Made by a program: the position numbers and the translations under genes
Part shown: positions 889 to 61,139 of the stretch, piece after piece
How positions within the stretch are numbered: position 1 is the stretch's first letter
Layout: the number at the start of each line of letters is the position of its first letter
Notes under the pieces: generated by a model
Seen by the model: only the letters and a program-made list of their open reading frames with translations
What the model was told of the DNA's origin: nothing
Databases searched by the model: none
NCBI GenBank assembly: GCA_964036295.1
Contig: OZ038466.1
Coordinates: 17,472,097-17,536,096, forward strand
Origin: Plumapathes pennacea
Taxonomy: Eukaryota; Cnidaria; Anthozoa; Antipatharia; Myriopathidae
DNA length: 64,000 nt
Direction: 5' to 3'

Positions 889-3800
889 GTACTGTACATT
901 ATATTGACAACAACTGCATTGAAACTTGCTAGTAGTAAGTGAACTGTGTACTTTCAACTGCTCGTGTAAAGAGAGAAATTCGACTTTGATCATAGTTTGG
1001 CTCGAAATTATTGATAGATAGCACGATCATTGATCCCCTTCTACGCCTCGCGTTTTTTTTTTTTCGTGGTCAAGCTTCAAGAAATGTTCCAGTGTGATAG
1101 CGTGGAGAACTCCTTTTTTCTCGTGATCGACTGCGTGTATATAATTAAGCTCGTTATTTTGTGCAGTCAGGCGAATTTGACAGCATCGAAAGAAGAAAAT
1201 AAATAGAAACAGTTGTTTCTAGACTCCAAGACATCTAATTTGTAGAACATCTTACAAAGAAGAATGGAATCCCTTGAATTATTTTTTGTTTATCTTTTAA
1301 TTATTTCTTTATTTCAGGAGGAGAAATACCTGGAGATCTTACGAGTTCTTAGCAGTGAGGGGGTTAAATGGGAGGATAAAGGACCAGCCAATAAGAGGTA
1401 CTGTACTGCATTAGACAAATCTTGGTGTCTATTTTTCTGCTTTTCGCGTTGCCTTCACAGGTTGCATGACCCAAAATACTCCACATGCTTGACAATTTAT
1501 CATTTCAGTTTGTCTTGTTATAGAAACATTGAAACGCGTAGCACCGAAAAATATTTCTATTAAGACGATATTTTTTTTGCGTAGCGCGCGATCGAATACG
1601 TACATATGATCCTTGGTGCTCAGGTTTGTTGGGTATATGTTTGACACAAGGCTACTTTCTCCCTGTGAAGGTGTCTAAAGTGCGCCCACCTGCCTTCCGC
1701 CCCCGCCATTCTAACACAATTGATGAAACTGCTTCAGTCCCAGCCAATGTTCAAGTTGCTGAGAATGTTAACGGGACTGGACCTTGCTGATCTACCACTT
1801 ACGGACGAAGAGCATGAAAACGAGGTATGTGTCAGGTGCCTATTTTTAATATACATGTACGTAGTAATTAGCAGCTTGATTTTGAGAGCTCCCGGCACAC
1901 CACTTTTGGAAATATTCTCCAAAGTGGAAAGAAACATCGCGGAAGTACGTTCTTGACACCAGCCTTGTATTTTCTTATGCACAATTTATGCTATGGAAAA
2001 TGCGTTGAACGATACTTTACAGCTGGGTATACAGTCAGAGTAGAGTCACATTATTGAACTTATTAAAATTTCGTGGCTAAGTCTTGAGGTTTTACGACCG
2101 TTCTACTGAACTACATACAAAACCTGCACTTGAATCAACAGTGAAGTGATCGCATAGTATAAACACGACCAAAACATAGTATAAACACGACCAAAACATG
2201 TGTTTCCGCGGTGTCGTGAAACCTTATGGATGCTCACATTCATTGAAAGTGAACTTGTTTAAAATGATTGGTCATGTGACCTCACCCCCGGTCAACTTAC
2301 GTTTGAGTGTCCAGAGGATGGTGGAACTGAAATTTTTGCTTTGTTTTTCCATTTTTCTTGAAATATGGACACGTGCAAAGATTAATGGATCTTGTGAAAA
2401 CGATCATGTGGACGCCATACTTTCAGTCCGTTTTAAGTGACTAAGGTAAAAACATACGGGCGAAACCTTAGTTACACTTTGTCTCTGATTTTAGGGGGCA
2501 TCTGAGAAGACAGTACAGCGCAATCCGCGTTCCTATGGAGACGTCCGCCATTTTACACACGGCTGCTACACGCTCGTGCACGATTCGCGCGCGGAAGGCG
2601 AGGAGTACGCGCTTGATGCTATGCTAACGTTTGGAGGAGAAGGTAAGTTGGAAGACCACAAACGTTTCGCAAGGCAGCAGTGCTAAACGAAGCTTTATTA
2701 TATGCCTCTCATACAGTACATGAAGTAAATAGTTGGTTAATTTGACTGACAAAAACCCTAAACCATTTCACTTCCGAGAACGATAAACTTTTCTCCCCCA
2801 GTTTCTCACCAGAGATAGGTCATACGGTAGTTTGCTCAGAAAACTTATTGGACAATCAATTTCCACTACATCACTAATGCATTTTATTCTTGAATGGTTA
2901 AGAGAGTTTGTATTTTGAGGTCGAGAGCGAAGGGATTAATAACACAACAACAATAAACATTTTACGAGTCACGTGGACTGCACACTTAACTATCGATAAT
3001 GTTGGAAGACTTCAAACCTCAGTGACATCTGCCAGATCGTATTACCTTATCTCTTTTTCTATCGAGTGATCAACTTAAAGTTTTTCCTTTAATTTCTTAC
3101 CACGCACGTCAAATATCCTGTCGTTACTGATTGTATCGTGCAATGGTTACACAATTGGCAGTGTTCCGGAGTTTCAGAAGTTTGTGAGTTTATCCACATT
3201 TCACTTGTTAGAATTTCACAGCCTTGTGTATTCTTGAAGTAAACGGGTCGAGCTGTTCCTTTTCGAGTACGTTAGAAACACAGCAGACAAAATAAATCCC
3301 AGCATAACTAGTAAATTGGCCACTATGACCAACCAAACAATGGCGCCGGTGGAGTCGCTTGTTATGAACCTCAGTGCTGCAAATGAGTTTAACAAGACTG
3401 CGAGAACTACAGCCTCGAGGGTATTCTCAAAAGGGAAGCGATTGCTGGCAGACTTATAAGGCTTTAGAAGATGATGCACTGCAAGAGAAACCGTCAGGAC
3501 AGAGCAAATAAGCACAGTCTGCCAGGAAGGGTACGTCTTGAGAAACGACAAAGCAGATGCAAGCAGGAGACGACGGCTGAGAAGAACTATCTCGCAGAAA
3601 TATCGGCATGGTTTGTAACTGGAGCATAGAGGTTCTAGCCATGACTGTAACTCTGGATCGTCTGCAGTGCTGTCTTCTTGGATTATTTTACGATGCCTGA
3701 GCAATAGAGGTAGAAATACGAAGTATGGAACGCTGATGACGTACACGGCTAAAGACGCCCAACCCAAGGAACGGAGGATGCTATGAATTCTACTCGGACA

Positions 3801-6800
3801 TTCCACCCAGGGTACGCTTGGCATATATGATATACCGCTGTCCTCTTCACAGGGAGTCAACGCAGAAATTGTGGCCGTCACAATCGGAAAGTATGTGAAG
3901 TTAAGAATCGTGATGGTGATTCGGCGACACGTGAACGTCAGGCCTGTCCGATCTTCACTGCGTTTTCTTAACTTTTGATAAACCAGTTTGGCTGCGCAGT
4001 AGAGCCAGGTTAGCGTAATGCAGGCTATAGGAAGAAGTAAGGTAGAAAGGAGTTTGCCAACCGGGGTGAAGAGTATCGTGAAGTCGCAGGATAAGTCTGT
4101 GAAATGCAAGTTCCACAAGCCGCTGAAGTAGTGCTGCGTTGAGAGGACTTCCTCGGGCCACACATTCGGCGCAAAAGATATCATAGAATCCAGAAGCTGG
4201 AAGTAAAACATGGCGATTTTTATCAGCGAATGCAGTTCGTCTCTCTTACTGTAAATGACCGACACAAAGACGAACAGAGAGAAGCCAAACACCCAGCCAG
4301 GAACGACTCCAAGGATCACCAGGATCAGCATCAACAATTCTTGAGTAACTAAAGCAGCGTAAGCTATCAGTCGATGAAAGTTTGAATTAGAAAATGCCCA
4401 CCACAATATTGGAATGCTGACGACCACAGCAAGCACGGAAATGTAAAGCTTCGGTCTGTCCTTGGCACATTCGAAGCAGATTTGGCCGCTTTTATAGAAT
4501 CCATCCAGACAACGAGAACAGAAGCGACCGGTGTTGCCATAGGAACAAAGGCAACTGCTGTTACAATGTGTCAGCGGCTGGTTTGGCTGCGTCAACGTTC
4601 CGTTTGTAGATTCCAGCCAGCAAGAACAATCACCAGAGGGATTGCAAACCTTCGGCGAGAAACACTGGCCCAGATGGGAGACATTATTCGGTATGGGCTG
4701 CGGCCAAAAGCCCTTGTTTATTATCATGAAGCTTTTGTTCAAATCCTGCCAATCCTTGACTTCCGGTTTCTCACAGACAGCTCCGCTCATGCACTCGTGA
4801 CAAACACCGCTGGTGCCATAGTGGCCCTCATCGCAGACGCAATATCTGTAACCATAGTAACTTGGATCGAGATGAACATGCCCGTCGTTGAACGTGAACC
4901 GGACCTGGGGACAAGTGAAGTTATCGCTGTTTTCCACTTTTAGCATGTTCTGGAAATCAGGTCTCAAAAATTTCGGATTCATTGCATTTTTCGCTCCTCC
5001 TCCATCGGACATTTCTGGATTGCCAGTAATGTTGAAGTATTGCAGAGTTGTTGCGCTGTAAAGGGATTGTGGCACTGAACCTGTGAGGTTGTTGTTTGAG
5101 AGGTCAAGGTACGTGAGAGGGACGTTGTCCGGCCCATTTATCTCTGGTATAGTCCCATAGAACTGGTTGTTGCCCAGATCGAGTGTAAGAAGGCTGGTGG
5201 AAAACCACCACAGTCCTGATAGCTTTCCTCGGATTCCGCAATTGTTTAAATTTAAAGTTTGTATATCGTGAAAATTTCCCAACACATAATCGTCAAAACT
5301 CTCGAAGTCCAAAGAAATATTCCGATTCCCAGCTAAAGAAAGGAATTCGAGAAGAATACTTATATTCCCCTCTGGCTTCAATTTCGTGCCGTTGTTAAGA
5401 GACGTAAAACGGTTCCCTGAAAAATCTGCCTGTACCAAATTATGGGAGGTGAAGAACATTCTTGGAATGTCGCCACTCAGCAGGTTATTGCTCAAGATAA
5501 GTTTATGTAAGTTTGCGCCATCAAGTCTGCATTTGAAACTTGATGGAAGTTTGCCTCTGATGCCATTTCCTGGTAGTACTACTCGCGATAATAAACAAGA
5601 CAAACGATCTGGTAAAGAGCCCTTAAGTGTCGTCCCAGAAATGAAAATATACGATAGAGATTTGAGAGATAGTAACTCATGCACGTCCCCTGACAACTGT
5701 CCTTGGGTATTTTGCAACTCTATATAGTACAGTTTCGAAAGCCTACTTATACTCCTGGGTATAGATCCTGTGAATTTGTTTCCCCCAATACCCAATAATC
5801 TGAGCTCTGCCATATTCCCAAGATCTTCAGGCAAAGCACCATATAACTTTTCGCCAACCATGTCGCAAGCTAACAAGGTCTGCAAATTAACCAGCTTGGT
5901 AACTTGGGGTGGGATTATTCCGCTGTAGCTTGTTCGTCGTATGGAGAGTGTCAGAAGCTTGGACATATTTGCGTGGAGAAAATCCTTGAATTGTCCACTT
6001 AGAGCTGGGTTGTCGCTTGGACAAAGTGCCAATAGGTTACGTAGTTTCCACAGGTCGTCGGTTAGAAATCCGTTCAAGTTGTTGGAAGCTAGCTGAATGC
6101 TCTTGACGTAAGGCGCATCTTTATAACACGTGATGCCATACCACGAGCAGTGATGCATGCTAGAATTCAACCAACCAGTGTTGTTGCACCAATGATGGCC
6201 GCCTGTAGCGTTGTAGAGTTTGATCAAAACCTGCTTTTCTTCATCTGGTGAGAAGGATACGTCTAAAGTGATGTTTGGCATGTCGGTAACACGTTTGAGA
6301 CAATCGTAACCTTCAACCGCAATGAATTGCTCAAAACCTGTAGAAATTATTATAAGCGGAAAAGCTTCGTTTTAGTTAGTGACATTGTAGATCAGCGCAT
6401 CATGCACATTCGGACAGTCGGGGAAAGGTGGAGGGGGGATTTCTGATATAGAAATATGATATTCGCAGATATCCCCTCGTTACCTCCCTCCCTCGACCCA
6501 GCCCTCCCGCGCGCCCGCCCCAGTCCATCGCGCCTTTTCTCTGGGCCTTTTTCCAGTATCTGAGAACCTGGAACAGGCTAGTTTACGCTATACTAGGAGA
6601 TAAATGAAAGAAAATTATATAAATAATACAATGAAATATATGAAATAGAGTTATGTAATATATAGAGGATATTACACGGCGGCTTGAAGATATGGATTTT
6701 ATTTTCGAGTGGTAAAAACAATATTTTACGAACGAGCGCATCGCAAGTGAGTAAAATATTGTTTTTACCACGAGAAAATAAAATCCATATCTTCAAGCCG

Positions 6801-9800
6801 CCGTGTAATTTTCTTTTTATTATATTAGACACGAGTGTTTTACGAGAAATTGCACAAACAATCGTGCAAAAGCGGGAAATGATGCTAACGATATCCTCAC
6901 TAGTGAGGATATGGAAAATACGCCACTCGGGTCCCGGATGTAGTTTTGTATGAATTTTACGCACGGTATATTTTCCAGTAAAACACTCGTGCCTATATAA
7001 TAAAAATAGGTTATTACACGGGAAGGAGTGCAATACGGCGGAGTATTTTTACGAGTCGGTTTTATTTTTTCGAGCCTGCTTCAGCCGAGAAAAAATAAAA
7101 CTGACGAGTAAAAATACAGCCGTATTGCACTACTTTTCGTGTAATAAATTGTTTATTATACGACAAACGAAGCAGGGCAAACGTTCTCGCCGCGCGCAAA
7201 ATGGAACAAAAAATGACGCGTTCGTAAACTTTGCTTGCGAAAATTGATCACGTAAGTTAATAAACCAGTTGATCTGGTTCCTGACGAGTGCAATACGTTC
7301 CCATATTTCTCTCGTTCTGGCCCATATTTGCACTCGAAAATGTGAAGTCGTGTAATAAAAATCTAAATTGTAAAACTCACTTGGGTAGGTTACAATGCAG
7401 ACAAAAACTACTGCAGGGTGTCAGGGGCGGGAGTTAATGGGATATTGTTCCATGTTACTATAGTGCCAGGTTAGAAAGTCATCGAAAACATGTTTCAAGG
7501 CCGAATACCGATATAAATGTTATTGTTACACTGGAGTAGGGGAGTGAAAACTTGATAAGACGTGACCATTTACAACATACTATGGCGTTCCGTTACGGAC
7601 AAAATTCCAAACTCGAAGTCGAAAACTCTTCATTTGAAGTCGAATTCTCATGAATCGAAGTCGAAAACTCTTCAATTAAAGTCGAACTCTCGTGAATCGA
7701 AGTCGAAAACTCTTCAATTGAAGTCGAACTCTCGTGAATCGAAGTCGAAAACTCTTTATTTGAAGTCGAATTCTCATGAATCGAAGTCGAAAGGAAACGG
7801 AAATGCATACCAGACATGTCACGCTGTGTCACGAAAGGGACAGGTTTATCTGTCACTCCTTTTGCAGTCCGCTTCACAACCAACAACATGTCAGACTGTG
7901 AAGGTGAAGTTCAGGATCTAAGCCGGATAGTCCGTGCTGTCGTAACAAATTTGCAGAGCCTTCCAAATGCAGATGGCAACCTTCAGAACTTACGGACTGT
8001 TTCAGCTCAGGAGCAACTGCTGAAGCAGGCACATCGGCCGTCACAACTGAACATGAAGAGCTGCGAAAAAGTTTTTATTGCATTCCGTGTTGCCGACAGC
8101 GACAGCCACATATCGTCAACTGCACGGCTAACCAGTACAGCAACTCCAGGAACTACAGTGCCAGCCAGACAGCAAAAGGCAAGGGAAAACAGCCGCTGTG
8201 ATCGGCCGGTGCCCGCTTCACGGGTTTCGAGGAAGCAGTATTAGTAAAACAGCCACCAGCCGATCGCAGCGGCTGTTTTCCCTTGCCTTTTGCTGTCTGG
8301 CTGGCACTGTAGTTCCTGGAGTTGCTGCACTGGTTAGCCATGTAGTTGACGAGATGTGGCTGCCGCTAATGCAATAAAAACTTCTTCGCAGCTCTTGTTC
8401 AGTTGTGACGGCCGATGTACCTGCTTCAGCAGTTGCTCCTGGGCTGAAATTCCGTAAGTTCTGAAGGTTGCCATCTGCATGTGGAAAGCTCTGCAAATTT
8501 GTTATGAGAGATCCTGGACTTCACCTTCACTGCGAATGGAGTGACAAATGAACCACGTGGTTTATCTGTCACTTTCGCGACACATGCAGCGTGACATGTC
8601 TGGTAGGCATTTCCGTTTCCTTTCGACTTCGATTCATGACAATTCGACTTCAATTGAAGAGTTTTCGACTTCGATTCACGAGAGTTCGACTTTAATTGAG
8701 GAGTTTTCGACTTCGATTCACGAGAGTTTTCGACTTCGATTCATGAGAATTCGACTTCAAATGAAGAGTTTTGACTTCGAGTGTTGAATTTCAATATGAT
8801 ATTTTTGTCCGTAACGGAACGCCATACATAGCGAAAGGGACGAAGGATTATATTATTGGTGATTTCAAGATGGTAGTAGATGTTTTGATTTCAAGCAGGT
8901 GTTTTTCATCAAACACGAAAGGCGGAAGTGCTAACCGCTTTGTCACTGCCGTGCTCTCGTAATTTGCATCAGTAAAAAAGGGTTAGACTAAAATAGAAGT
9001 TGAATATAATGGAGGTTATCAATCGAAAGTAGGAAAACCTTCTTGGATTAACATGTGCCGTAGCACAAACTTTAGTGGAGGATTGTATGGCCGTCGTTTT
9101 AACTTTGGGCTGGTGATCACTAAGACACAGTTACTGGTTACCAAAAGTAAATTAAATCAGACGTGGACTTACGATGTGTTACACGGGTTGATTTGCAACG
9201 ACGATTTTATTTTCTATATTTCTTGCCTAGTAATCGTCTAAACTATCAATTAATAGGAATCTTTGCACAAAAAAATGCCTTTGGCGAAGGTTCGCCATGA
9301 TTTTGGAGTAAAACCAAAGCGCTAGCTACAACATTATAGATGTTGCGCGACAAATCGTCGTTAAATATCGTCTCGTGTAACATCACCTTTAAGGCTTGGT
9401 TCAAACATCTAACTTGTCAACTCGTATGCCAAACTAATACTGCACTACTATGCATAAAGCGCTCGGCTTAGAGTGAATTAATTGAATGCGAATGTTTTGC
9501 AAGCAGTTAAAAAAGAAAGCGTCAAACGTCTCACGCACCAAATCTGTTGTATAAATGATATATGTCAGCGGTTAGGTCTATTTGTGGCGATTCATATGAT
9601 TTACTGTCAATTTGTTGTTAATTAACCACATTAATTCTACTTATAGATCGAATTACATAATGTAGATTGACTTTTGAAATACGCCTTAAAAGTTTGGAAC
9701 TTATCAGAACTTACCATTTTTAACAATGTAGCCGTCACACTCGAATCCGTTGGTGACTAGAGAGTGTTGAAACAATAGAAGCATGATTACTAAGAACTTG

Positions 9801-12800
9801 GATGCAGTCATTTTCCCGTGACTTTCTTCTGTCGGGTCCGTGTTTTCAAGCTCTTCTCCCCATGCGGAAATGAGGTTTTACATACTCGAGGTTTCTGATT
9901 TTGACAAAGAAACAGTATCGAAAGTAATAAAATTAACTATGACGTCTAGGCTCGTAAATAGTCTTTTGTTTGCCTCCACCAATCACTGAATTAAGCTGAA
10001 CTGTATTTAAGAAAAGTAGTTAATTACGTATTCAGTTGCTCAATAGGCAAAAGAACAGTTTGAAAGTTAAACTCTAAACGCATCATACTTATTAGAGTCC
10101 CAATTGATTTAGTCGATGATGTACAGCACGTGATTCCAAGAATGATCGACGAAGTCCTTTTAGTCGTCACGTTTGATGTGGTCTAATCAATTATAATCAG
10201 CGATTCCCACGGTGGTTATACAAATTTGCGTTTGCTCTATTTAAAATGTACATTCAACAAATCTGGTGAAGTTTAAATAAAGTCAGCAACTTTCAACTGA
10301 AAAAATCATTACTGTTTTCGTTACTTTTGAAACTGATGACTACCTGTTCTTTTTTTTTTTTTATGACCAAACCAACCTTTTGGAGAGCTATGCATCTATT
10401 GTGCATCTAACTTTCGACTCAGCCATGTTGATAAAAGGAAGTCTAACTTTGATTAGGGCCCACTGGTTTTGTCTGATGACATAGTCAATCACCAGTTGAT
10501 GTGGCACTTGGAGGTGTAAGGAGACTTGGTGTACTCATTGTATATTATAGGGGTACATGATTGTACCAAAGTTTTCAGCTGCTGGTATAGTTTCCTTCGC
10601 TTACTAACTGGGGAGGGGGTGGGGGGAGCGGAATATAATGGAAGTTATAAAAATCGAAAGTAGCGAAAACTTCGACCAAGGCTTGGATTTAACATGTCCC
10701 CGAAGTACAAACGAGGACTGTACGATCGTTGTTTCAAAGTTTCCTTCCCTTACTAACTGGGGAGGGGGGGGGGGGGGGGGGGGGGGTAGGTGGGGGGAGC
10801 GGAATGCAATGGAAGTTATAAAAATCGAAAGTAACGAAAACTTCGACCTTCGCCCCCGAAATACAAACGAGGACTGTACGGTCGTTGTTTCAACTTTGAG
10901 CTCATGAACACTACAAATCAGTTATTAATTGCGAAGAGTAAACTGAATCCGTCAACTGGTTGAAACATCGAACTTCTTTGTCAGCTCATATGCCGAGCCT
11001 AATGCTACGCTGTTAAGTGCACAAAAGGCTTCGCTTGCGATGAATCAATTGAGTGTGAATGTTCTAGAAGCATTTATATTCGATTAAGAGTTTGACAGAA
11101 CTTACCATTCAAAGCACATAAAATCTTTTCCTGACTGAATTCAACTTAAAGAAGCGTGGTGTCGGACTAAATACGAACACAAATTTATTCAGGAAAGAAG
11201 GACTGAAATGTTTTTTTAAATTGGTGTCTGGAAGACTCCACTAATCTGACTAAGCTCTAGCCTTTTGGGGGAAAAACAACAATTACTTCCAAAACTGGCC
11301 TCTATAGAAACGTGTGACTGTTTGGTGTTATTTTTTGCTTGTTTAGGTTGGGCCAACTTACTTGGCGAGCGTCTAAATCTATTTTTACTTACAATATATG
11401 TTAGTAGGTTTACTGCAGCAATCACATTGTGCTTCCCGTGCCGTAAAATACAGTATCACTGTTTTAAATAGACCCGTTATCTGTTCTTTGAAGCGGTCTC
11501 AAAATATAGAAGATTTGCTACTTTAAGAGACCTGAGATTGCGCAATTTTCCAGGGGAGCACGCTTCCGTACTCCCCCCCCCCACCTAGAGTGTCGCGCCT
11601 ACGCGCTAGCTATATATTTCTAATCTGCTGGCTCTACTTCTGCAGTGTTAACTTCGAACTTACAATCCTGAGCTTTCAATTTAACCTTAGGAGGTGTCAC
11701 TGTTCAAACAGAAAGCTCGCTGATGAATCCATCGGAAGGAATTGATATGAAACTTATGATAGTATATAAAGTGGGTCGGCAGTGTTTCTGAGTTTATCCA
11801 CATTTCATCTGTTAGAATTTCAGAGCCTTGTGTATTCTTGATGTAAACGGGTCGAATTGTTCCTTTTCGAGTACATTAGAAACACAGCAGACAAAATAAA
11901 TCCCAGCATAACTAGTGAATTGGCCACCATGACCAACCAAACAATGGCGCCGGTAGAGTCACTTGTTATGAACCTCAGTGCTGCAAATGAGTTTAACAAG
12001 ACTGCGAGAACTACAGCCTCGAGGGTATTCTCAAAAGGGAAGCGATTGCTGGCAGACTTATAAGGCTTTAGAAGAAGATGTACTGCAAGAGAAACCGTCA
12101 GGACAGAGCAAATAAGCACAGTCTGCCAGGAAGGGTACATCTTGAGAAACGACAAAGCAGATGCAAGCAGGAGACGACGGCTGAGAAGAACTATCTCGCA
12201 GAAATATCGGCATGGTTTGTAACTGGAGCAAAGAGGTTCTAGCCATGACTGTAACTCTGGATCGTCTGCAGTGCTGTCTTCTTGGATTATTTTACGATGC
12301 CTGAGCAATAGAGGTAGAAATACGAAGTATGGAACGCTGATGACGTACACGGCTAAAGACGCCCAACCCAAGGAACGGAGGATGCTATGAATTCTACTCG
12401 GACATTCCACCCAGGGTACGCTTGGCATATATGATATACCGCTGTCCTCTTCACAGGGAGTCAACGCAGAAATTGTGGCCGTCACAATCGGAAAGTATGT
12501 GAAGTTAAGAATCGTGATGGTGATTCGTCGACACGTGAACGTCAGGCCTGTCCGATCTTCACTGCGTTTTCTTAACTTTTGATAAACCAGTTTGGCTGCG
12601 CAGTAGAGCCAGGTTAGCGTAATGCAGGCTATAGGAAGAAGTAAGGTAGAAAGGAGTTTGCCAACTGGGGTGAAGAGTATCGTGAAGTCGCAGGATAAGT
12701 CTGTGAAATGCAAGTTCCACAAGCCGCTGAAGTAGCGCTGCGTTGAGAGGACTTCCTCAGGCCACACATTCGCGAAAGATATCATGGAATCCAGAAGCTG

Positions 12801-15800
12801 GAAGTAAAACATGGCGATTTTTATCAGCGAATGTAGTTCGTCTCTCTTACTGTAAATTACCGACACAGAGACGAACAGAGATAAGCCAAACACCCAGCCA
12901 GGAACAACTCCAAGGATCACCAGGATCAGCATCAACAATTCTTGAGTAACTAAAGCAGCGTAAGCTATCAGTCGATGGAAGTTTGAATTAGAAAATGACC
13001 ACCACAATATTGGAATGCTGACGACGACAGCAAGCACGGAAATGTAAAGCTTCGGTCTGTCCTTGGCACATTCGAAGCAGATTTGGCCGCTTTTATAGAA
13101 TCCATCCAGACAACGAGAACAGAAGCGACCGGTGTTGCCATAGGAACAAAGGCAACTGCTGTTACAATGTGTCAGCGGCTGATTTGGTTGCGTCAACGTT
13201 CCGTTTGTAGATTCCAGCCAGCAAGAACAATCACCAAAGGGATTGCAAGCCTTCGGCGAGAAACACTGGCCCAGATGGGAGACATTATTCGATATGGGTT
13301 GCGGCCAAAAGCCCTTGTTCATTATCATGACGCTTTTGTTCAAATCCTGCCAATCCTTGACTTCCGGTTTCTCACAGACAGCTCCGCTCATGCACTCGTG
13401 ACAAACACCACTGGTGCCATAGTGACCCTCATCGCAGACGCAATATCTGTAACCATAGTAACTTGGATCGAGATAAACATGCCCGTCGTTGAACGTGAAC
13501 CGGACCTGGGGACAAGTGAAGTTATCGCTGTTTTTCACTTTTAGCATGTTCTGGAAATCAGGTCTCAAAAATTTCGGATTCATTGCATTTTTCGCTCCTC
13601 CTCCGCCGTACATTTCTGGATTGCCAGTGATGTTGAAATATTGCAGAGTTGTTGCGCTGTAAAGGGATTGTGGCACTGAACCTGTGAGGTTGTTGTTTGA
13701 GAGGTCAAGGGACGTGAGCGGGACGTTGTCCGGCCCATTTATCTCTGGTATAGTCCCATAGAACTGGTTGTTGCCCAGATCGAGTGTAAGCAGTCTGGTG
13801 GAAAACCACCACAGTCCTGATAGCTTTCCTCGGATTCCGCAATTGTTTAAATTTAAAGTTTGTATATCGTGAAAATGTCGCAACATATAATCGTCAAAAC
13901 TCTCGAAGTCCAAAGAGATATTCCGATTCCCAGCTAAGGAAAGGAATTTGAGAGGAATACTTAGATTCCCCTCTGGCTTCAATTTCGTGCCGTTGTTAAG
14001 GGACGTAAAACGGTTCCCTGAAAAATCTGCTTGTTCCAAACTATGGGAGGTGAAGAACATTCTTGGAATGTCGCCACTCAACAGGTTATTGCTCAAGATA
14101 AGTGTAAGTAAGTTTGCGGCACCAGGTTTGCATTTGAAACTTGATGGAAGTTTGCCTCTGATGCCATTTCCTGGTAATACTACTCTGTATAATAAACAAG
14201 ACAAAGGATCTGGTAAAGAGCCATTAAGTGTCGTCCCAGAAATGAAAATATACGACAGAGATTTGAGAGACAGTAACTCGTGCAAGTCCCCTTTCAATAG
14301 TCCTTGGGTATTTTGCAACTCTATGTAGTACAGTTTTGAAAGTCTGCTTATACTCTTGGGTATAGATCCTGTGAATTTGTTTCCCCCAATACCTAAGAAT
14401 CTCAGCTCTTTGATATTCCCAAGATCTTCGGGTAAAGGACCATATAACTTTTCGCCAACCATGTCGCAAGCTAACAAGTTCTGCAAATTAACCAGCTTAG
14501 TTATTTGTGGTGGGATTATTCCGCTGTAGCTTGTTCGTCGTATGGAGAGTGTCAGAAGCTTGGACATATTTGCGTGGAGAAACTCTTCCAATTGTCCACT
14601 TAGAGCTGGGTTGTCGCTTGGACAAAGTGCCAATAGGTTACGTAGTTTCCAGAGGTCGTCGGTTAGAAATCCGTTCAAGTTGTTGGAAGCTAGCTGAATG
14701 CTCTTGACGTAAGGTGTATCTTTGTAACACGTGATGCCATACCACGAGCAGTGATGCATGCTGGAATTCAACCAACCAGTGTTGTTGCACCAATGATGGC
14801 CGCCTGTAGCGTTGTAGAGTTTGATCAAAACCTGCTTTTCTTCCTCTGGTGAGAAGGATACGTCTAAAGTGATGTTTGGCATGTCGCTAACACGTTTGAG
14901 ACAATCGTAACCTTCATCCGCAATGAATTGCTCCAAACCTGTGGAAATTATTATAAGCGGAAAAGCTTCGTTTGAGTTGGTAACATCGTGGATCAGCACT
15001 TCATGCACGTTCGAACAGTCGGGGAAAAGTGGAGGGGGATTTCTGATATAGAAATACGATATTCGCAGATATTCTCTCGTCCTGCAAAAGGGATAGGTAC
15101 AGTTTTTTCGATCAAATATATTTTTCTGTTAAATTAAAGAAGATTCCTTTAGGAAATATATTTACTTTAGGTTAAGTATTCTAAATTGGCATTGTCTCAT
15201 GTGATTGCGTAGTTGTTTCGTTACTATCCGGCTGCTGCTCAGTAATATGTGGATCGTAATTAACTCTTTCAAACCCAAACTCAAAATACAGATTCTCCCA
15301 ACCTTTCAAGAAACTATGAGTGATATAGCGAGAATTGATATTTCAATCAGCTTTCATCTGAGAGAGTTATCAAAAGCCAATATCTGCTTTCTGTATGATA
15401 TATTTCTGGTGAGAAACTGAAGGAGAAAATTGAAGTTGATCACTCTTGAGAGTGAAAGGGTTTATAACAACCACAACGCGGCACAGTTTTCTTCGAAAGA
15501 TGTCGCATGTTCAAGGCTCCGCGGAAAATAGATCTGATAAACCTAGGTCCACCCACTTAGTTTACCAGCGCGCCGACGCGGACCAAAGCTAGTTGTCATG
15601 GAAATCAGATGATGTGCTCTCTCAACCACAATCCTTTGCGCGCCTAAGTCCTCAATCCACCATTTTTATGGCTTCTAAAACCGCAATTGCCAACCATTTC
15701 CATCCGACTTGTTTGACAAAATTAATTTCGTTTCGCCTAAAATGAAATTTAGTGACGTACTCATTGATTTACTCGACGCGGGAACCAAAAGGCAACCTTT

Positions 15801-18800
15801 GGTTTATATTGATACATAGTTCTTATTAATCGAGGGGGAGGTCCGCTGCATAAAGGAATGTTTTGCCCGAGGTCTTTGAACCGACCGAGGCGCTTCGCCA
15901 AGTTCGGTTTATAAGGAGTTTATTAAATTACAACATTTATAACGGAAACGAAAATGAAACTTCGAAGAAAACCACTTTCACGCGCGGCTGTCAAATTTGA
16001 TGAGCATTTGACGTTTGCAGCCAAGGCGAATTCTTCTTCGAATGCGAATTCGTCGAATTCTTCGCTCTTTTTATAGTGAGGGTCCTTGTTTAACCAAAGT
16101 TCCGAAAGAACTGCTCGATATTTATTTATTTTTTCTTTTCTCACAAAATGCAGATTTCTCAAGCATAGGTTTATAGCCAAAATATTAGGGAAGGAAACTG
16201 AACTGATTGTTACGTTATTCCTGTGTGTTTTCGACATTCACAGTATCACACGGCGGCCATGTTTGATTGAAGCGTCCACTTGCGAAAAAGTTTAATCGAA
16301 ACTACAGGTTGTCACTGTTTCAAAACGAAGCCATGCAAAACTTGCGTTCATTTTCATGCAAAACTTTAAACGCATTATACACAGTAAGAAGCCCGACCAT
16401 TTAGTCATGATGCGATTTGATGTGATTTTAGAAAAGCAGCGGTTCCCACGGTGATTTTTCTAATTTGTGTTTGCTGCGGTCGATCGGGTTTTCGGTTTCT
16501 TGCATGGAAATCTGTTTGTTATCTTGGAATGAATGACTTATTTATACATTATATATAATTAGCAATTAAACTGAAAAATCTTTAGTGTCTTCATTCTTTT
16601 TTACACTTATGACTACCAATTTCTTTAATCCTTTGTGATGTTAGAATATGATACTCCTAAAATCAGTTTACACTATACTAGGAGATAAATAAAAGAAAAA
16701 TATATAAATAATACAGTGAGATAGAGATATGTATTATAAATCTAAAATTGCAAAACTTAGCTTGGGCAGGAGCCCATTACCCTGGCTTGGGTAGGTTACA
16801 ATGCAGGCATAGCAGAAATTTTAAAACTACTGCAGTGTGCCAGGGACGGGAGTTAATGGGACATTGTTCCAAGTTACTATAGTTCCAGGTTAGAAAGTCA
16901 TCGAAAACATGTTTCAAAACCAAGTTTTCATGTTTCAAGGCCGAATATAGAGGGCCACACGTTTATTAACTCTGCTATTATGTGCTACCCTCGTTAAATA
17001 AAGACATTACTTACTTACTTACTAATACCATTATAAATGTTATTGTTACACTGGAGTAGGCGAGTGAACACTTGATATGACGTGACATTTACAACATAGC
17101 GAAAGGGACGAGGGGTTATCTTATTGGCGATTTGAAGATGGTAGTAGATGTTTTGCTTTTAAGCAGGCGTTTTCCATCAAACACGAAAGGCAGAAGTGCT
17201 AACCGCTTCGTCACCGCCGTGCTCTCGTAATTTGCATGAGTACAAAAGGGTTAGACTAAAATAGAAGTTGAATATAATGGAGGTTATCAATCGAAAGTAG
17301 GAAAACCTTCTACTTGGATTAACATGTGCCGTAGCTCAAACTTTAGTGGAGGATTGTATGGCCGTTGTTTTAACTTTGGGCTGGTGATCACTAAGACACA
17401 GTTACTGGTTACCAAAAGTAAATTAAATCAGGCGTCGACTTAAGATGTGTTACACGGGTCGATTTGCAACGACGATTTTATTTTCTATATTCTTGCCTAG
17501 TGCATTTCTTGCCTAGTAATCACAAACTGCCTAGTAAGCACAAACTTTAGTGGAGGATTGTATGGCCGTTGTTTTAAGCTTTGGGCTGGTGATCACTACT
17601 GGTTGCCAAAAGTAAATTAAATCTGACGCTGACTTAAGATGTGTTACACGGGTCGATTTGCAACGACGATTCTATTTTCTATATTTCTTGCCTAGTAATC
17701 GTCTAAACTATCAATTAATAGGAATCTTTGCACAAAAAATGCCTTTGGCGAAGGTTTGCCATGATTTTGGAGTAAAACCAAAGCGCTAGCTACAACATTA
17801 TAGATGTTGCGCGACAAATCGTCGTTAAATATCGTCTCGTGTAACATCACCTTTAAGGCTTGGTTCAAACATCTAACTTGTTAACTCGTATGCCAAACTA
17901 ATACTGCACTACTAAGCATAAAGCGCTCGGCTTAGAGTGAATTAATTAAATGCGAATGTTCTGCAAGCAGTTAAAAAAGAAAGCGTCAAACGTCTCACGC
18001 ACCAAATCTGTTGTATAAATGATATATGTCAGCGGTTAGGTCTATTTGTGGCGATTCATATGATTTACTGTCAATTTGTTGTTAATTAACCACATTAATT
18101 CTACTTATAGATCGAATTACATAATGTAGATTGACTTTTGAAATACGCCTTAAAAGTTTGGAACTTATCAGAACTTACCATTTTTAACAATGTAGCCGTC
18201 ACACTCGAATCCGTTGGTGACTAGAGAGTGTTGAAACAATAGAAGCATGATTACTAAGAACTTGGATGCAGTCATTTTCCCGTGACTTTCTTCTGTCGGG
18301 TCCGTGTTTTCAAGCTCTTCTCCCCATGCGGAAATGAGGTTTTATATACTCGAGGTTTCTGATTTTGACAAAGAAACAGTATCGAAAGTAATAAAATTAA
18401 CTATGACGTCTAGGCTCGTAAATAGTCTTTTGTTTGCCTCCACCAATCACTGCATTAAGCTGAACTGTATTTAAGAAAAGTAGTTAATTACGTATTCAGT
18501 TGCTCACTAGGCAAAAGAACAGTTTGAAAGTTAAACTCTAAACGCATCATACTTATTAGAGTCCCAATTGATTTAGTCGATGATGTGCAGCATGTGATTC
18601 CATGAATGATCGACGAAGTCCTTTGAGTCGTCACGTTTGATGTGGTCTAATCAATTATAATCAGCGATTCCCACGGTGATTATACTAATTTGCGTTTGCT
18701 CTGTTTATACTTAATGTACATTCAGCAAATCTGGTGAAAATTAAATAAATTTCTTTCAACTGAAAAACCATTACTGTTTTCGTTACTTTTGAAACTGATG

Positions 18801-18807
18801 ACTACCT

Positions 18808-18839
<32 letters not shown>

Positions 18840-21800
18840 TTTCTCTAATTTTGTGATGACCAAACCAACCTTTTGGGGAATTATGCATCTATTGTGCGTC
18901 TAACGTTCGACTCAGCCATGACGATAAAACGAAGTCTAACTTTAATTAGGGCCCACTGGTTTGTCTGATAACATAAGCAATGACACTTGGAGGTGTAAGG
19001 AGACTTGGTGTACTCTATGTATATTATAGGGGTACATGATTGTACCAAAGTTTTCAGCTGCTGGAAAAGTTTCCTTCGCTTACTAACTGGGGAGGGGGTG
19101 GGGGGTGGGTGGGGGGAGCGGAATGCAATGGAAGTTATAAAAATCGAAAGTAACGAAAACTTCGACCAAGGCTTGGATTTAACATGCCCCCGAAATACAA
19201 CCGAGGACTGTACGGTCGTTGTTTCAACTTTGAGCTCATGAACACTACAAATCAGTTATTAATTGCGAAGAGTAAACTGAATCCGTCAACTGGTTGAAAC
19301 ATCGAACTTCTCTGTCGGCTCATATGCCGAGCCTAATGCTACGCTGTTAAGTGCACAAAAGGCTTGGCTTACGATGAATCAATTGAGTGTGAATGTTCTA
19401 GAAGCATTTATATTCGATTAAGAGTTTGACAGAACTTACCATTCAAAGCACATAAAATCTTTTCCTGACTGAATTCAACTTAAAGAAGCGTGGTGTCGGA
19501 CTAAATACGAACACAAATTTATTCAGGAAAGAAGGACTGAAATGTTGTTTTAAATTGGTGTCTGGAAGACTCCACTAATCTGACTTAGCTCTAGCCTTTT
19601 GGGGGAAACCAACAATTACTTCCAAAACTGGCCTCTATAGAAACGTGTGACTGTTTGGTGTTATTTTTTGCTTGTTTAGGTTGGGCCAACTTACTTGGCG
19701 AGCGTCTAAATCTATTTTTACTTACAATATATGTTAGTAGGTTTACTGCAGCAATCACATTGTGCTTCCCGTGTCGTAAAATACAGTATAACTGTTTTAA
19801 ATAGACCCGTTATCTGTTCTTTGAAGCGGTCTCAAAATATAGAAGATTTGCTACTTTAAGAGACCTGAGATTGCGCAATTTTCCAGGGGAGCACGCTTCC
19901 GTACTCCCCCCCCCCCCCCCCCCCCCCCCCCCACCTAGAGGGTCGCGCCTACGCGCTAGCTATATATTTCTAATCTGCTGGCTCTACTTCTGCAGTGTTA
20001 ACTTCGAACTTACAATCCTGAGCTTTCAATTTAACCTTAAGAGGTGTCACTGTTCAAACAGAAAGCTCGCTGATGAATCCATCGGAAGGAATTGATATGA
20101 AACTTATGATAGTATATAAAGTGGGTCGGCAGTGTTTCTGAGTTTATCCACATTTCATCTGTTAGAATTTCAGAGCCTTGTGTATTCTTGATGTAAACGG
20201 GTCGAATTGTTCCTTTTCGAGTACATTAGAAACACAGCAGACAAAATAAATCCCAGCATAACTAGTGAATTGGCCACCATGACCAACCAAACAATGGCGC
20301 CGGTAGAGTCACTTGTTATGAACCTCAGTGCTGCAAATGAGTTTAACAAGACTGCGAGAACTACAGCCTCGAGGGTATTCTCAAAAGGGAAGCGATTGCT
20401 GGCAGACTTATAAGGCTTTAGAAGAAGATGTACTGCAAGAGAAACCGTCAGGACAGAGCAAATAAGCACAGTCTGCCAGGAAGGGTACATCTTGAGAAAC
20501 GACAAAGCAGATGCAAGCAGAAGACGACGGCTGAGAAGAACTATCTCGCAGAAATATCGGCATGGTTTGTAACTGGAGCACAGAGGTTCTAGCCATGACT
20601 GTAATTCTGGATCGTCTGCAGTGCTGTCTTCTTGGATTATTTTACGATGCCTGAGCAATAGAGGTAGAAATACGAAGTATGGAACGCTGATGACGTACAC
20701 GGCTAAAGACGCCCAACCCAAGGAACGGAGGATGCTATGAATTCTACTCGGACATTCCACCCAGGGTACGCTTGGCATATATGATATACCGCTGTCCTCT
20801 TCACAGGGAGTCAACGCAGAAATTGTGGCCGTCACAATTGGAAAATATGTGAAGTTAAGAATCGTGATGGTGATTCGTCGACACGTGAATGTCAGGCCTG
20901 TCCGATCTTCACTGCGTTTTCTTAACTTCTGATAAACCAGTTTGGCTGCGCAGTAGAGCCAGGTTAGCGTAATGCAGGCGATTGGAAGAAGTAAGGTAGA
21001 AAGGAGTTTGCCAACTGGGGTGAAGAGTATCGTGAAGTCGCAGGATAAGTCTGTGAAATGCAAGTTCCACAAGCCGCTGAAGTAGTGCTGCGTTGAGAGG
21101 ACTTCCTCGGGCCACACATTCGGCGCAAAAGATATCATAGAATCCAGAAGCTGGACGTAAAACATGTTGATTTTTATCAGCGAATGCAGTTCGTCTCTCT
21201 TACTGTAAATGACCGACACAAAGACGAACAGAGAGAAGCCAAACACCCAGCCAGGAACAACTCCAAGGATCACCAGGATCAGCATCAACAATTCTTGAGT
21301 AACTAAAGCAGCGTAAGCTATCCGTCGATGAAAGTTTGAATTAGAAAATGACCACCACAATATTAAAATGCTGACGACGACAGCAAGCACGGAAATGTAA
21401 AGCTTCGGTCTGTCCTTGGCACATTCGAAGCAGATTTGGCCGCTTTTATAGAATCCATCCAGACAACGAGAACAGAAGCGACCGGTGTTGCCATAGGAAC
21501 AAAGGCAACTGCTGTTACAATATGTCAGCGGCTGGTTTGGTTGCGTCAACGTTCCGTTTGTAGATTCCAGCCAGCAAGAACAATCACCAGAGGGATTGCA
21601 AGCCTTCGGCGAGAAACACTGGCCCAGATGGGATACATTATTCGGTATGGGCTGCGGCCAAAAGCCCTTATTCATTATCATGAAGCTTTTGTTCAAATCC
21701 TGCCAATCCTTGACTTCCGGTTTCTCACAGACAGCTCCGCTCATGCACTCGTGACAAACACCGCTGGTGCCATAGTGGTCCTCATCGCAGACGCAATATC

Positions 21801-24800
21801 TGTAACCATAGTAGCTTGGATCGAGATAAACATGCCCGTCGTTGAACGTGAACCGGACCTGTGGACAAGTGAAGTTATCGCTGTTTTTCACTTTTAGCAT
21901 GTTCTGGAAATCAGGTCTCAAAAATTTCGGATTCATTGCATTTTTCGCTCCTTCTCCGTCGGACATTTCTGGATTGCCAGTGATGTTGAAATATTGCAGA
22001 GTTGTTGCGCTGTAAAGGGATTGTGGCACTGAACCTTTGAGGTTGTTGTTTGAGAGGTCAAGGTACGTGAGCGGGACGTTGTCTGGCCCATTTATCTCTG
22101 GTATAGTCCCGTAGAACTGGTTGTTACCCAGATCGAGTGTAAGCAGTCTGGTGGAAAACCACCACAGTCCTGATAGCTCTCCTCGGATTCCGCAATTGTT
22201 TAAATTTAAAGTTTGTATACCGTGAAAATTTTGAGAAGCATACTTGTCAAAACTCTCGAAGTCCAAAGAGATATTCCGGTTCCCAGCTAAAGAAAGGAAT
22301 TTGAGAGGAATACTTATATTCCCCTCTGGCTTCAATTTCGTGCCGTTATTGAGAGACGTAAAACGGTTCCTTGAAAAATCAACCTGTGCCAAACTTTTGG
22401 TAGTGAAGAAAATTCTTGGAATGTCGCCACTCAGCAGGTTATTGCTCAAGTTAATGTTTTTTAAGTTTGCGGCACCAGGTCTGCATTTGAAACTTGATGG
22501 AAGTTTGCCTTTGATGTTATTTCCTGGTAGTACTACTCTTGATAGTAAACAAGACAAAGGATCTGGTAAAGAGCCCTTAAGTGTCAGCCCAGAAATGAAA
22601 ATAAACGATAGAGATTTGAGAGACAGTAACTCATGCAAGTCCCCTTTCAGTAGTCCTTGGGTATTTTGCAACTCTATGTAGTACAGTTTTGAAAGTCTGC
22701 TTATACTCCTGGGTATAGATCCTGTGAATTTGTTTCCCCCAATGCCCAATAATCTGAGCTTTGCCATATTCCCAAGATCTTCCGGTAAAGCACCAGATAG
22801 CTTTTCGCCAACCATATTGCAAGCTAGCAAGGTCTGCAAATTAGCCAGCTTGGTAATTTGGGGTGGGATTATTCCGCTGTAGCTTGTTCGTGTTATGGAG
22901 AGGGTCAGAAGCTTGGACATATTCGCGTGGAGAAACTCTTTGAATTGTCCACCTAGAGCTGGGTTGTCGTTTGGACAAAGTGCTAATAGGTTACGTAGTT
23001 TCCACAGGTCATCGGTTAGAAATCCGTTCAAGTTGTTGAAAGCTAGCTGAATGCTCTTGACGTAAGGCGCATCTTTGTAACACGTGATGCCATACCACAA
23101 GCAGTGATGCATGCTAGAATTCAACCAACCAGTGTTGTTGCACCAATGATGGCCGCTTGTAGCATGGTAAAGTTTGATCAAGACCTGCTTTTCTTCCTCT
23201 GGTGAGAAGGATTCGTCTAAAGTGATGTTTGGCATGTCGCTAACACGTTTGAGACAGTCGTAACCTTCATTTCCGATGAATACCTCAAAACCTGTGGAAT
23301 TTAATATAGATGAATAAGCTTCGTTTAAACCTATAAATCAAAACATGAACATCGACCTTGTATTGATTGAATGTGCAGTTTACCACCGCGCCGAGCTCTC
23401 AACCAGTCCTTTGCGCACCGAGGTCCCCCATGCCTCAAAAATCGTCGCCCCAAAAATCGAACGCACTTTTATCCGATTTGTTTGAGAAGATTAGTTTCGT
23501 TTGGCCTTTAGTGGAATTTGGTGGCGTACTTTGTCATCGATTTTCCAAAAAGCAACCTTTAGGTTTAGATTCTCTAGCATAAAAGTTCCTTTAGTCGTCA
23601 CGTTTGATGTGATTGGTAGCGGTTTCCACGGTGATTATTATAAATGTACAAACTTGTGTTTGCTGCGGTCGATCGGATTTTCAGTTTCTTTGGGAAAGTG
23701 TTTATTGCCTTGATATGAATGATATGTTTATACATGTATGCAACCAGCAAAACTAGTGGTACTTTAAAGTAGGAACTAATTTAACTGAAAAATCATTGTC
23801 TTCGTTCCTTTTGACACCTATGACTAGTACCGATTTCTCCTCAGACGGTTTTGATTTCAAGCAGGCGTTTTTTCATCAAGGACGAAATGCAAAAGCGCCA
23901 ACCTTTTCGTCACGGCTGTGCTCTCGTAATTTGCATCGGTACAAAAGGGTTAGACAAATACAATGGAGGCTTTGAATCAAATCGAAAGTATGGAAAACTT
24001 CCACTTGGATTTAACATGTGCCGAAGTACAAACTTAACTAATTTTCGCTAGGACTGTATGGCCGCGCTGTTTGAACTTTGGGACTGATGCTTGGTTCAAA
24101 CATCGAACTTGTCAACCCCTAGTTCACTATTGAGTGCATCAAATGTTCGGTTTATATTAAACCAATTGAATGCGAATGTTCTGCAAGTCATGCAGAGTCG
24201 GCGGCCGACCTAACAAAACGGTTTAAGCTTGACTCCGATTCATACGCCAAACATCCCATGTGCCGAGTATATTAGTGATATATGTGAGCGATTAGGGTAA
24301 TTTGTGGTTGTTCACATGACTTAACTGTCACTTTATTGCTAATCGACCACATTAATTCTACTTTTTGATCGAATTGAATAATGTTGATTGACTTTTAATA
24401 TACGCCTCATAAGTTTGGAACTTATCAAAACTTACCATTTGGAACAGTGTGGCCGTTACACTCAAATCCGTTGATAACTGGAGAGTGTTGAACCAAAAGA
24501 AGCGTCATCACCCAGATCCTGGACGCAGTCATTCTCCTGTGTTTTGTGGGCGTTACCGCTGTCTTCTTCTGCAGAGAGCGTCTGTGTTCTCAAGCTCTTC
24601 TTCCAGCGAAAATGAGATTGGATATACTCGAGGATTCTGATTTTGACAGAATATCGAAAGTAAATTATCTTTGACGTCACGGCTCGTGAACAGTCCTTTG
24701 TTTGGCTCCACCAATCACTACAAGCTGAACATTATTTGAGAAAAGCAGTTTATTACATATTCACATGGTTACTCGATAAACAGTTAGTTATTCTGTCTTT

Positions 24801-27899: not shown

Positions 27900-28940
27900 T
27901 TCATGCAGCGTCTTGCTAAAAGTTTGCGTTGTCGATGCGTTGCACAGAGCTCCTACTGGTTTCAGAACATATATCTTTTAGTCCCAGGAGGCCACTAAAG
28001 CTTGAACTTGGCGTGGAAAAATATGTTTAGAAATCAGTCCGTCTGCACATTATGGACAATGTCTATGTCTGGGCTAATGACGCCTCGTTTTTGCAGGTCT
28101 GTAACTAATGACGACGGACATATCTGAGAATATCAAAGCGCTCTTTACTTGTTGTGCCATAAATCTTTTCCAAACACGAATTTTACTCAGACAAAGTAAA
28201 CTTCCAACTCTTGAACTTTCAAGAAGCTTAAAATAAGGTGTGACCACTCAAAGAAAAGTTCTCAGTGAGTACATCCCAATTTTAGCGTCGGATAGGAGCT
28301 CAGTGTACCAATAGTATGTACCAATAGCTACTGTTACTAATAACTACTGTTACTCTTACGGCGTTCCAGTACCTTGATCAACTTTCAGTTGATACACCAG
28401 CGTTTAATATCTCACTTGACGCCGACGCAGTTAATCTAGTTCTCTTAAGAGCTGGTATCACAATACCAATATAGTATGGTGTCTCATTCCTACTTGTGCT
28501 GGACCTCTTCCTTTCTCTTCTGTACGACTTTGTTTGTTATTTTGAACTGAGTGAACAGCCGTGCTGGCAAGCTAGCCTGAAGACCACGCGAAGCTGGTGT
28601 GAGGAGAGCCCCTGCGTCAAAACAGCGCCATTGCGACTTTCACTGTCCAAAATTGCGGCGGCGCGACAGTGCGCTACTACAATTCAGGACACGCGGAAAA
28701 CCGTTTGTTTGATGTCAAGCTTATTCATATATTTTCCGTTTTGATAACTGATTTGTGGTGAAGTATTGATTAAAATATAGGCTAGTACAGAGCTACCAAA
28801 TGAACAGGATGGGACATTCCAAGACTTCCGAAAATATCGTTATCATTAACTTTTTCCCTGAAATAACTTTCAATTCTTTGTACATAAAAACAATTTTATC
28901 TAAAGTAAGGGGTTCGTTCGGCTGAAGAACTCGTTTTTCC
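27900..28940. other. Intergenic, no gene seen
   Basis: No protein family or clear repeat is recognised. An 82-codon open frame at 28496-28744 has no supporting features. Confidence 0.4.
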
Positions 28941-60801: not shown

Positions 60802-60814
60802 CTAATGAGAGGGA

Positions 60815-61139
60815 GATTTCTTTCTTCACGGGAAATTGGTTACAATCGTTTTCCAGTTTGGTGATTTGAAACATCACGGCATTCTCTATGTTACAAAGCA
60901 AGATATGGATTATATCTCGCAAACATATGGCGTCATGACTAAGTAATGATACCTCGCGCGTGGTATGATTACTCACAGCTCTTATCCCTGATTGGCTATT
61001 ATCGGGATATGGTTACTCGGTCAGCCCGGCATGAAATTTATGGTCTCTGATTGGTTAAAACCGGGAAATAATTCACCTTTCAAGTGATTTCTTTCCCTCC
61101 ATGTTAAAATTGACCTCTCCATGTTAAGATTGACATGTG
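60815..61139 (-). repeat. Repeat copy upstream of the DUF229 exon (inverted to 30856-31180)
   Basis: Read on -, it matches 30856-31180 until about 14 bases before the DUF229 acceptor. The open frame reaching 60976 through CLRDIIHILLCNIENAVMFQ is translated repeat, not part of DUF229. Confidence 0.85.

What the first reader, a model, noticed from the sequence alone, without database searches (positions are those of the whole stretch)
2643..26191. Three antisense LRR-Cys-polytopic receptor genes nested in one OGFOD1 intron
Each paralogue combines plant-type LRRs with their N-terminal cap, a cysteine-rich EGF/ephrin-receptor-like module and about ten membrane segments, with almost no cytoplasmic tail and no kinase, TIR or death domain. 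Plant-type LRRs in an animal polytopic protein, expanded in tandem and with leaders on separate exons, look like a lineage-specific sensor family. Exons and topology are read from the sequence; the sensing role is inference.
Basis: partly seen in the sequence, partly recalled or inferred. Interest (0 to 1): 0.85.

Follow-up and report, generated by a model that had tools for sequence, protein, structure and literature searches.

The report
Anthozoan LRR receptors with channel-like core
Three near-identical genes inside one intron of another gene appear to encode coral-type membrane receptors that join a plant-style leucine-rich sensor to a membrane core distantly related to fungal TRP-like calcium channels, an unstudied combination that may let recognition of a ligand act directly through the membrane.

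Summary
Three minus-strand genes (modelled proteins 92-95% identical) lie in one 23.5-kb OGFOD1 intron ending exactly at 2643 and 26191. Each has a predicted leader exon and one long exon encoding plant-type LRRs, a Cys-rich module, a polytopic domain (11 helices; AlphaFold pLDDT 88) and a tail of about 17 residues, under purifying selection (dN/dS 0.30-0.34). The 'lineage-specific orphan' reading needs correction. The architecture is old: relatives occur in stony corals and octocorals. The Cys-rich plus membrane module recurs in 22 other places of the same genome in frames without LRRs (profile comparison E=4e-24). The membrane domain is TRP-like: fungal Pkd2/Flc family PF06011 matches five places in the 290-Mb genome, window gene 2 and four such paralogues; the best fold match is a giant-virus protein named TRP ion channel. 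Against this, all three window proteins miss the PF06011 cut-off in hmmscan and no solved structure matches. Tails carry YxxPhi or acidic di-leucine motifs in 42 of 49 rows (motifs chosen after seeing tails). Best explanation: an LRR sensor fused to a TRP-like core that transduces the signal, surface level set by endocytosis. Channel activity is inferred, not shown.

The parts
2643..26191 (+). single OGFOD1 intron that holds all three genes
   Evidence: matches to human OGFOD1 4nhx on both sides (the piece next to the donor is weak, E 0.18); GTAAGT at 2643, TTTAG ending 26191
9715..9811 (-). gene 1 leader exon, predicted (signal peptide-like)
3216..6337 (-). gene 1 main exon (LRR + Cys-rich + membrane domain + tail, stop at 3216-3218)
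3216..4460 (-). gene 1 membrane domain and tail (ends YTRL)
18179..18275 (-). gene 2 leader exon, predicted
11820..14938 (-). gene 2 main exon
11838..12560 (-). gene 2 stretch matching PF06011 (TRP), 29.7 bits in the genome-wide search (G000:C5:17483934-17484656), cut-off 28.5
   Evidence: the same protein scores 25.3 in hmmscan
24436..24532 (-). gene 3 leader exon, predicted
20170..23291 (-). gene 3 main exon
21970..23217 (-). gene 3 LRR ectodomain with LRRNT_2-like cap (residues about 40-455 of the stop-to-stop frame)
21415..21951 (-). gene 3 Cys-rich module (residues 462-640); 16 Cys invariant in 49 LRR-type rows, 12 Cys invariant in 10 rows of both types
20170..21414 (-). gene 3 membrane domain (11 helices in model) and tail of about 17 residues

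Best explanation
These are three young tandem copies of an old anthozoan receptor family in which a plant-type LRR solenoid on the outside is fused, through a Cys-rich EGF/ephrin-receptor-like neck, to a membrane core of the PF06011 'TRP-like' (fungal Pkd2/Flc) kind. Shown by sequence or model: the architecture and its conservation, shared ancestry of neck plus core with paralogues lacking LRRs in their frame, a distant TRP-like relationship, purifying selection, tail motifs. Inferred: the LRRs bind an extracellular ligand; because the tail is about 17 residues with no signalling domain, the signal passes through the membrane core, most likely as gated cation (Ca2+) flux as for fission-yeast Pkd2; the YxxPhi or acidic di-leucine tail sets surface level by endocytosis. 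The confidence is for the whole chain; architecture plus TRP-like relationship alone I would put near 0.85.
For: PF06011 genome-wide: 12 candidates scored, 5 matches at E<=0.001, window gene 2 (29.7 bits, cut-off 28.5) and four paralogue frames, 4 of 5 over cut-off; 0 of 14 control genomes. As proteins, L016 and L017 score 35.5 and 32.5, relative P0061 31.5. LRR type versus the other type, hhalign (5 against 5 sequences): 99.6%, E 4e-24, 464 columns with the Cys module; core alone (4 against 5) 96.4%, E 1.3e-9, 288 columns. Core model pLDDT 88.3, pTM 0.85; viral-library Foldseek rank 1 'Transient receptor potential ion channel', E 1.8e-4, prob 1.00, TM 0.56, rmsd 6.3. Loops assigned inside carry 2,2,8,5,3,4 K+R, outside 0,1,2,1,0. 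dN/dS 0.30-0.34 overall, membrane part 0.17-0.22. Tail motifs in 42 of 49 tails, shuffles mean 11.6, maximum 21 in 1000 shuffles. Pkd2: extracellular domain and nine-helix domain essential, Ca2+ passed on stretch, tail for internalization though dispensable (PMC11277609, passages).
Confidence: 0.45

Rival explanations
1. A CRMP-like contact sensor: the core works like that of the cysteine repeat modular proteins, as a GPCR-like or complex-scaffolding transducer that licenses regulated exocytosis (in a cnidarian, for example nematocyst or gland discharge), rather than as a channel.
For: CRMPs: Cys-rich/ephrin-receptor-like ectodomain, conserved core of two EGF-like domains plus nine TMs, differing ectodomains, similar predicted core in Dictyostelium (PMC9815656, passages); tied to exocytosis in Tetrahymena and Toxoplasma and proposed host sensor (PMC9670195, passages). 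Paralogues here have GCC2/GCC3-like exons near the core in 9 of 13 loci by eye.
Against: No CRMP sequence was available, so homology to CRMPs is untested; only 1 of 3 such exons matched Ephrin_rec_like, E 0.003, below cut-off; LRR type has 11 helices; no exocytosis link for any cnidarian member.
Confidence: 0.2
2. An endocytic or endolysosomal LRR receptor (scavenger or sorting receptor) whose polytopic core anchors, dimerises or moves lipid, with no signalling through it.
For: YxxPhi or [DE]xxxL[LI] in 42 of 49 tails; no signalling domain; the fungal PF06011 protein TrpR partly co-localises with a late-Golgi marker and has a putative lipid-binding TRP_N domain (PMC8618638, passages).
Against: A single helix would do for an endocytic receptor; the membrane part evolves more slowly at the protein level than the LRR part.
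Confidence: 0.22
3. An LRR co-receptor that needs a separate signalling partner, the core serving as partner-binding scaffold.
For: No cytoplasmic effector domain; an LRR-only plus TIR-only receptor pair is described for Hydra (PMC5094078, passage).
Against: The core is shared with frames that have no LRR, so it has a function of its own.
Confidence: 0.1
4. Decayed or artefactual copies.
For: Near-identity of copies and repeats nearby.
Against: Three intact frames, conserved splice sites, dN/dS 0.30-0.34.
Confidence: 0.02

Closest known systems
Fungal TRP-like family PF06011 (S. pombe Pkd2, Flc/TrpR)
   Same: Extracellular N-terminal domain plus polytopic core; PF06011 reaches window gene 2 and paralogues in the genome search; tail used for internalization in Pkd2
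   Different: Fungal TrpR homologues carry a TRP_N/ML-like ectodomain (PMC8618638, passages), not LRRs; Pkd2 nine helices against 11 here; window proteins below cut-off in hmmscan
Cysteine repeat modular proteins (CRMPs) of Apicomplexa and ciliates
   Same: Cys-rich EGF/ephrin-receptor-like module before a polytopic core, variable ectodomain (PMC9815656, PMC9670195, passages)
   Different: LRRs not among the CRMP domains in the passages seen; nine TMs; sequence homology not tested here
'Putative leucine-rich repeat-containing protein DDB_G0281931' (Dictyostelium; name that sources give to octocoral relatives P0018, P0032, P0039)
   Same: name-giver of octocoral relatives
   Different: Dictyostelium sequence not seen; no paper in the library holds this name
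Plant LRR receptor kinases (GSO1, FLS2)
   Same: LRR sequence and LRRNT_2 cap
   Different: no kinase, not single-pass
Polycystin-1
   Same: LRRs outside and 11 TMs (recalled, no call)
   Different: no PLAT, GPS, PKD or PKD_channel match
Toll-like receptors
   Same: extracellular LRRs
   Different: no TIR, polytopic

Membership tests
PF06011 TRP-like (Pkd2/Flc) | profile match over the curated cut-off (28.5 bits) | tested here: inconclusive
   window gene 2 29.7 bits in the genome search but 20.6/25.3/24.7 for proteins 1-3 in hmmscan; P0061 31.5; paralogues L016/L017 35.5/32.5
PF06011 TRP-like (Pkd2/Flc) | fold of the membrane domain | tested here: met
   viral library rank 1 'TRP ion channel', E 1.8e-4, prob 1.00, TM 0.56; predicted against predicted structure, no solved structure matched
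PF06011 TRP-like (Pkd2/Flc) | ML-like (TRP_N) ectodomain | tested here: not met
   no such Pfam match; LRRs instead
PF06011 TRP-like (Pkd2/Flc) | Ca2+ permeability | not testable with these tools
   -
CRMP | Cys-rich EGF/ephrin-like module next to the core | tested here: met
   Cys pattern; EphA2 region E 0.05 only, so the ephrin-like label is weak
CRMP | nine transmembrane segments | tested here: inconclusive
   LRR type 11 helices; the other type lacks about two in the alignment, not folded
CRMP | sequence homology of the core | not tested
CRMP | role in regulated exocytosis | not testable with these tools
Plant LRR receptor kinase | cytoplasmic kinase, single helix | tested here: not met
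Toll-like receptor | TIR domain | tested here: not met
Polycystin-1 | PLAT, GPS/GAIN, PKD repeats, PKD_channel (features recalled) | tested here: not met
   no such Pfam match at E<=1

The most novel reading that the evidence does not exclude
A single-chain animal receptor-channel: a plant-style LRR recognition domain wired through a Cys-rich neck to a TRP-like cation-permeable core, so that recognising a microbe, symbiont or prey surface directly opens Ca2+ entry. By analogy with CRMPs, the same core could be the contact trigger for cnidarian exocytosis (immune secretion or nematocyst discharge), uniting fungal Pkd2, protist CRMPs and these receptors in one ancient sensor-core superfamily with swappable ectodomains.
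Probability: 0.25. Interest if true: 0.88.

Novelty: new variant of a known kind. Interest (0 to 1): 0.64.

Why it matters
The library searches made here showed no report of an animal protein that fuses plant-type LRRs to a TRP-like core. It gives cnidarians, which interact closely with symbionts and microbes, a candidate class of surface sensor outside TLRs and NLRs, and may link an unstudied animal family to two studied but poorly understood ones, Pkd2 and CRMPs. LRR and LRR-less forms of the same core occur side by side in one genome, so the role of each part can be tested by swapping.

Tried and rejected
Solved-structure matches for the membrane domain: none significant with either model. 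PDB sequence search with the neck-plus-core profile: only EphA2 Cys-rich region, best E 0.05. NCBIfam: nothing for the window core. Relatives in viral contigs by pattern plus tblastn: none, although the structural viral library has three with probability 1.00 (E 1.8e-4, 6.6e-4, 8e-3). Papers on the architecture: none found. Considered and rejected: TLR, LRR receptor kinase, polycystin-1 (domains absent); pseudogenes. PF05569 Peptidase_M56 hits (E 0.03-0.04) judged chance, far below cut-off. Comparison with CRMP or Dictyostelium sequences could not be made. LRRs in other exons of the LRR-less paralogues: a motif count over six frames of their loci gave 0-4 LRR-core and 0-3 plant-type motifs per locus against 3-6 and 4-7 in the LRR-type loci L001-L006, so an LRR exon outside the stretch fetched is not excluded.

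Full report
What is there. Three long frames on the - strand (3216-6371, 11820-15128, 20170-23337) encode proteins that, as modelled, are identical at 1014 of 1071, 990 of 1072 and 992 of 1071 positions. Self-comparison shows three tandem units, the coding part 95-96% identical in DNA. Upstream of each lies a 97-bp stretch starting MTAS..., followed by GTAAGT in phase 1; joined to the CAG|GTTT(T/G)GAG acceptor each gives one uninterrupted frame of 1072, 1071 and 1072 residues. The introns are predicted; no transcript was available. On the + strand, pieces of OGFOD1 match human OGFOD1 (4nhx): residues 272-319 at 742-885, with two weak pieces (318-398) at 1309-1416 and 1693-1824 (E 6e-8 together); 451-495 at 2519-2659 (weak, E 0.18); 483-512 at 26170-26259 (E 5e-4); and up to 562 at 27691 (E 6e-11). 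Pfam Ofd1_CTDD agrees at both ends (6e-10 and 9e-5, the second below its cut-off).

Architecture. The ectodomain is plant-type LRR: Pfam LRR families, LRRNT_2 at 21.1, 20.7 and 16.1 bits for genes 1, 2 and 3 against a cut-off of 20.7, plant receptor kinases as best PDB hits, five NxLxGxIP motifs against 0.03 in shuffled sequence. LRRNT_2 matches 27 of 42 members of one set of relatives at E<=0.001 and 29 of 40 of another at E<=0.1; both sets hold fragments without the N-terminus. Sixteen Cys of the neck are invariant over the 49 rows of A6 and twelve over ten rows of both types; the profile finds only the EphA2 Cys-rich region in PDB, weakly (E 0.05). The membrane domain was folded twice: with the neck and 40 sequences (pLDDT 77.1, pTM 0.70) and alone with 75 sequences (pLDDT 88.3, pTM 0.85). 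Eleven long helices result. With the N-terminus outside, loops that fall inside hold 2,2,8,5,3,4 K+R and loops outside 0,1,2,1,0; the invariant Cys 765 and 861 and the nearly invariant Cys 844 fall in outside loops. No kinase, TIR or death domain.

The tail. The window tails are about 17 residues and end YTRL in all three. In the 49 rows of A6 (5 own-genome rows and 44 of the 88 P proteins, chosen to leave out fragments and near-duplicates), 28 tails have YxxPhi, 21 have [DE]xxxL[LI], 42 have either; 1000 residue shuffles give a mean of 11.6 and at most 21. The motifs were chosen after the tails had been seen and the rows are related, so the test overstates the case. That these are clathrin-type sorting motifs is recalled.

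Family and age. The window's genome (G000, 290 Mb) holds at least six LRR-type genes: three here, two on C2, one on C12. A tree of 51 rows (neck plus core) gives a clade of 8 with L006 and a Desmophyllum row, a clade of 13 with the named octocoral row P0032, and a clade of 27 with the window and C2 genes and other Desmophyllum and Oculina rows (support 98/97, 100/100, 92/97; P0087 and the two outgroup rows are long branches). So the family is old and the three-fold copy young. dN/dS between window copies is 0.30-0.34; LRR part 0.32-0.39, membrane part 0.17-0.22; for the C2 pair 0.64 and 0.17. The LRR part is also more divergent at silent sites, so part of the contrast may be gene conversion of the 3' half.

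The membrane core is not an orphan. A search of the genome with neck plus core also found 533-543-aa frames without LRRs. Searching with one of these gave 43 matching pieces, 22 of them long (over 370 of 542 residues) and outside the LRR-type genes, on C1, C3, C4, C6, C8, C10, C11 and C12; the window genes and one C2 gene also match. I call these LRR-less because their open frame has no LRR; no clear LRR exon showed in the loci fetched, but a distant one is not excluded. In 13 loci where I looked upstream, 9 show GCC2/GCC3-like Cys-rich frames by eye; of three such frames scanned, one reached E 0.003 for Ephrin_rec_like, below its cut-off, and two nothing. Profile comparison of the LRR type with the LRR-less type, neck plus core: probability 99.6%, E 4e-24, 464 columns; core alone 96.4%, E 1.3e-9, 288 columns. 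The LRR-less type lacks about two of the eleven helices in these alignments, which disagree on which two; it was not folded.

TRP-like identity. PF06011 hits the window proteins below cut-off in hmmscan, one relative above (P0061, 31.5 bits), none at E<=1 in L004, L006 and P0087, and few others (8 of 40 at E<=0.1; 2 of 42 at E<=0.001). Taken alone that is weak. The genome-wide search is stronger: of 12 candidates scored in 290 Mb five match at E<=0.001, gene 2 of the window (29.7 bits, over cut-off) and four LRR-less frames on C12, three of them over cut-off; two of these give 35.5 and 32.5 bits as proteins, and they are 43% identical to the type that aligns with the window core. Independently, the core model's best matches in the viral library are three Megaviridae proteins with probability 1.00 (E 1.8e-4, 6.6e-4, 8e-3), the first named 'Transient receptor potential ion channel' (TM 0.56, rmsd 6.3, 386 columns); rank 4 is a glycoprotein M at probability 0.85, TM 0.27. 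No solved structure matches. I therefore call the core TRP-like in the PF06011 sense, a distant relative rather than a filed member, and make no claim of kinship to animal TRP channels.

How it may work. In fission yeast, Pkd2 needs its extracellular domain and its nine-helix core, passes Ca2+ when the membrane is stretched, and uses its otherwise dispensable tail for internalisation (PMC11277609, passages). CRMPs of Toxoplasma and ciliates have a Cys-rich ectodomain and a polytopic core (nine TMs in T. gondii), differ in ectodomain, resemble Dictyostelium proteins in predicted core, and are proposed surface sensors for exocytosis (PMC9815656 and PMC9670195, passages). The present proteins share the plan: exchangeable sensor, Cys-rich neck, polytopic core, possibly a trafficking tail. 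The best-supported reading is that the LRRs sense and the core transduces, most likely as gated cation flux. The link to CRMPs is by architecture only; no CRMP sequence could be compared. A GPCR-like or scaffold mode, or a purely endocytic receptor, remain open.

Novelty. Searches of the paper library found nothing on the architecture; in three papers on cnidarian immune or duplicated genes (PMC10236652, PMC5094078, PMC12314368) the passages shown do not mention it. Known parts, new combination: new variant of a known kind.

Noticed in passing
7613-7792 and 8621-8780: Two arrays of a 42-bp unit in inverted orientation inside the OGFOD1 intron, between the gene 1 main exon and its leader.
   Followed up: no
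60023-61012: Minus-strand DUF229/sulfatase-like frame, PF02995 240.9 bits.
   Followed up: no
27995-28108: Weak match to the Mtr4/DSHCT helicase C-terminus just downstream of OGFOD1 (PDB E 0.51; Pfam E 0.078).
   Followed up: no
G000 C4 21.87-26.11 Mb (L007, L008, L009, L010, L013, L015 lie there): Seven LRR-less paralogues spread about 0.5-0.9 Mb apart, 83-100% identical to one of them: a dispersed expansion.
   Followed up: partly
L016, L017 (G000 C12): 535-aa neck-plus-core frames with the two best PF06011 scores of the genome search (as proteins 35.5 and 32.5 bits) and a DUF7630 match in the neck.
   Followed up: partly
A0A5J6VHI1, A0A5J6VI06, A0A5J6VLW6 (BFVD): Three Megaviridae environmental proteins match the core fold with probability 1.00; pattern scans of viral contigs found no sequence-level relative.
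   Followed up: partly
window genes 1-3: Silent divergence between copies falls from the LRR part (dS 0.12-0.16) to the membrane part (0.05-0.07), suggesting gene conversion of the 3' half.
   Followed up: no
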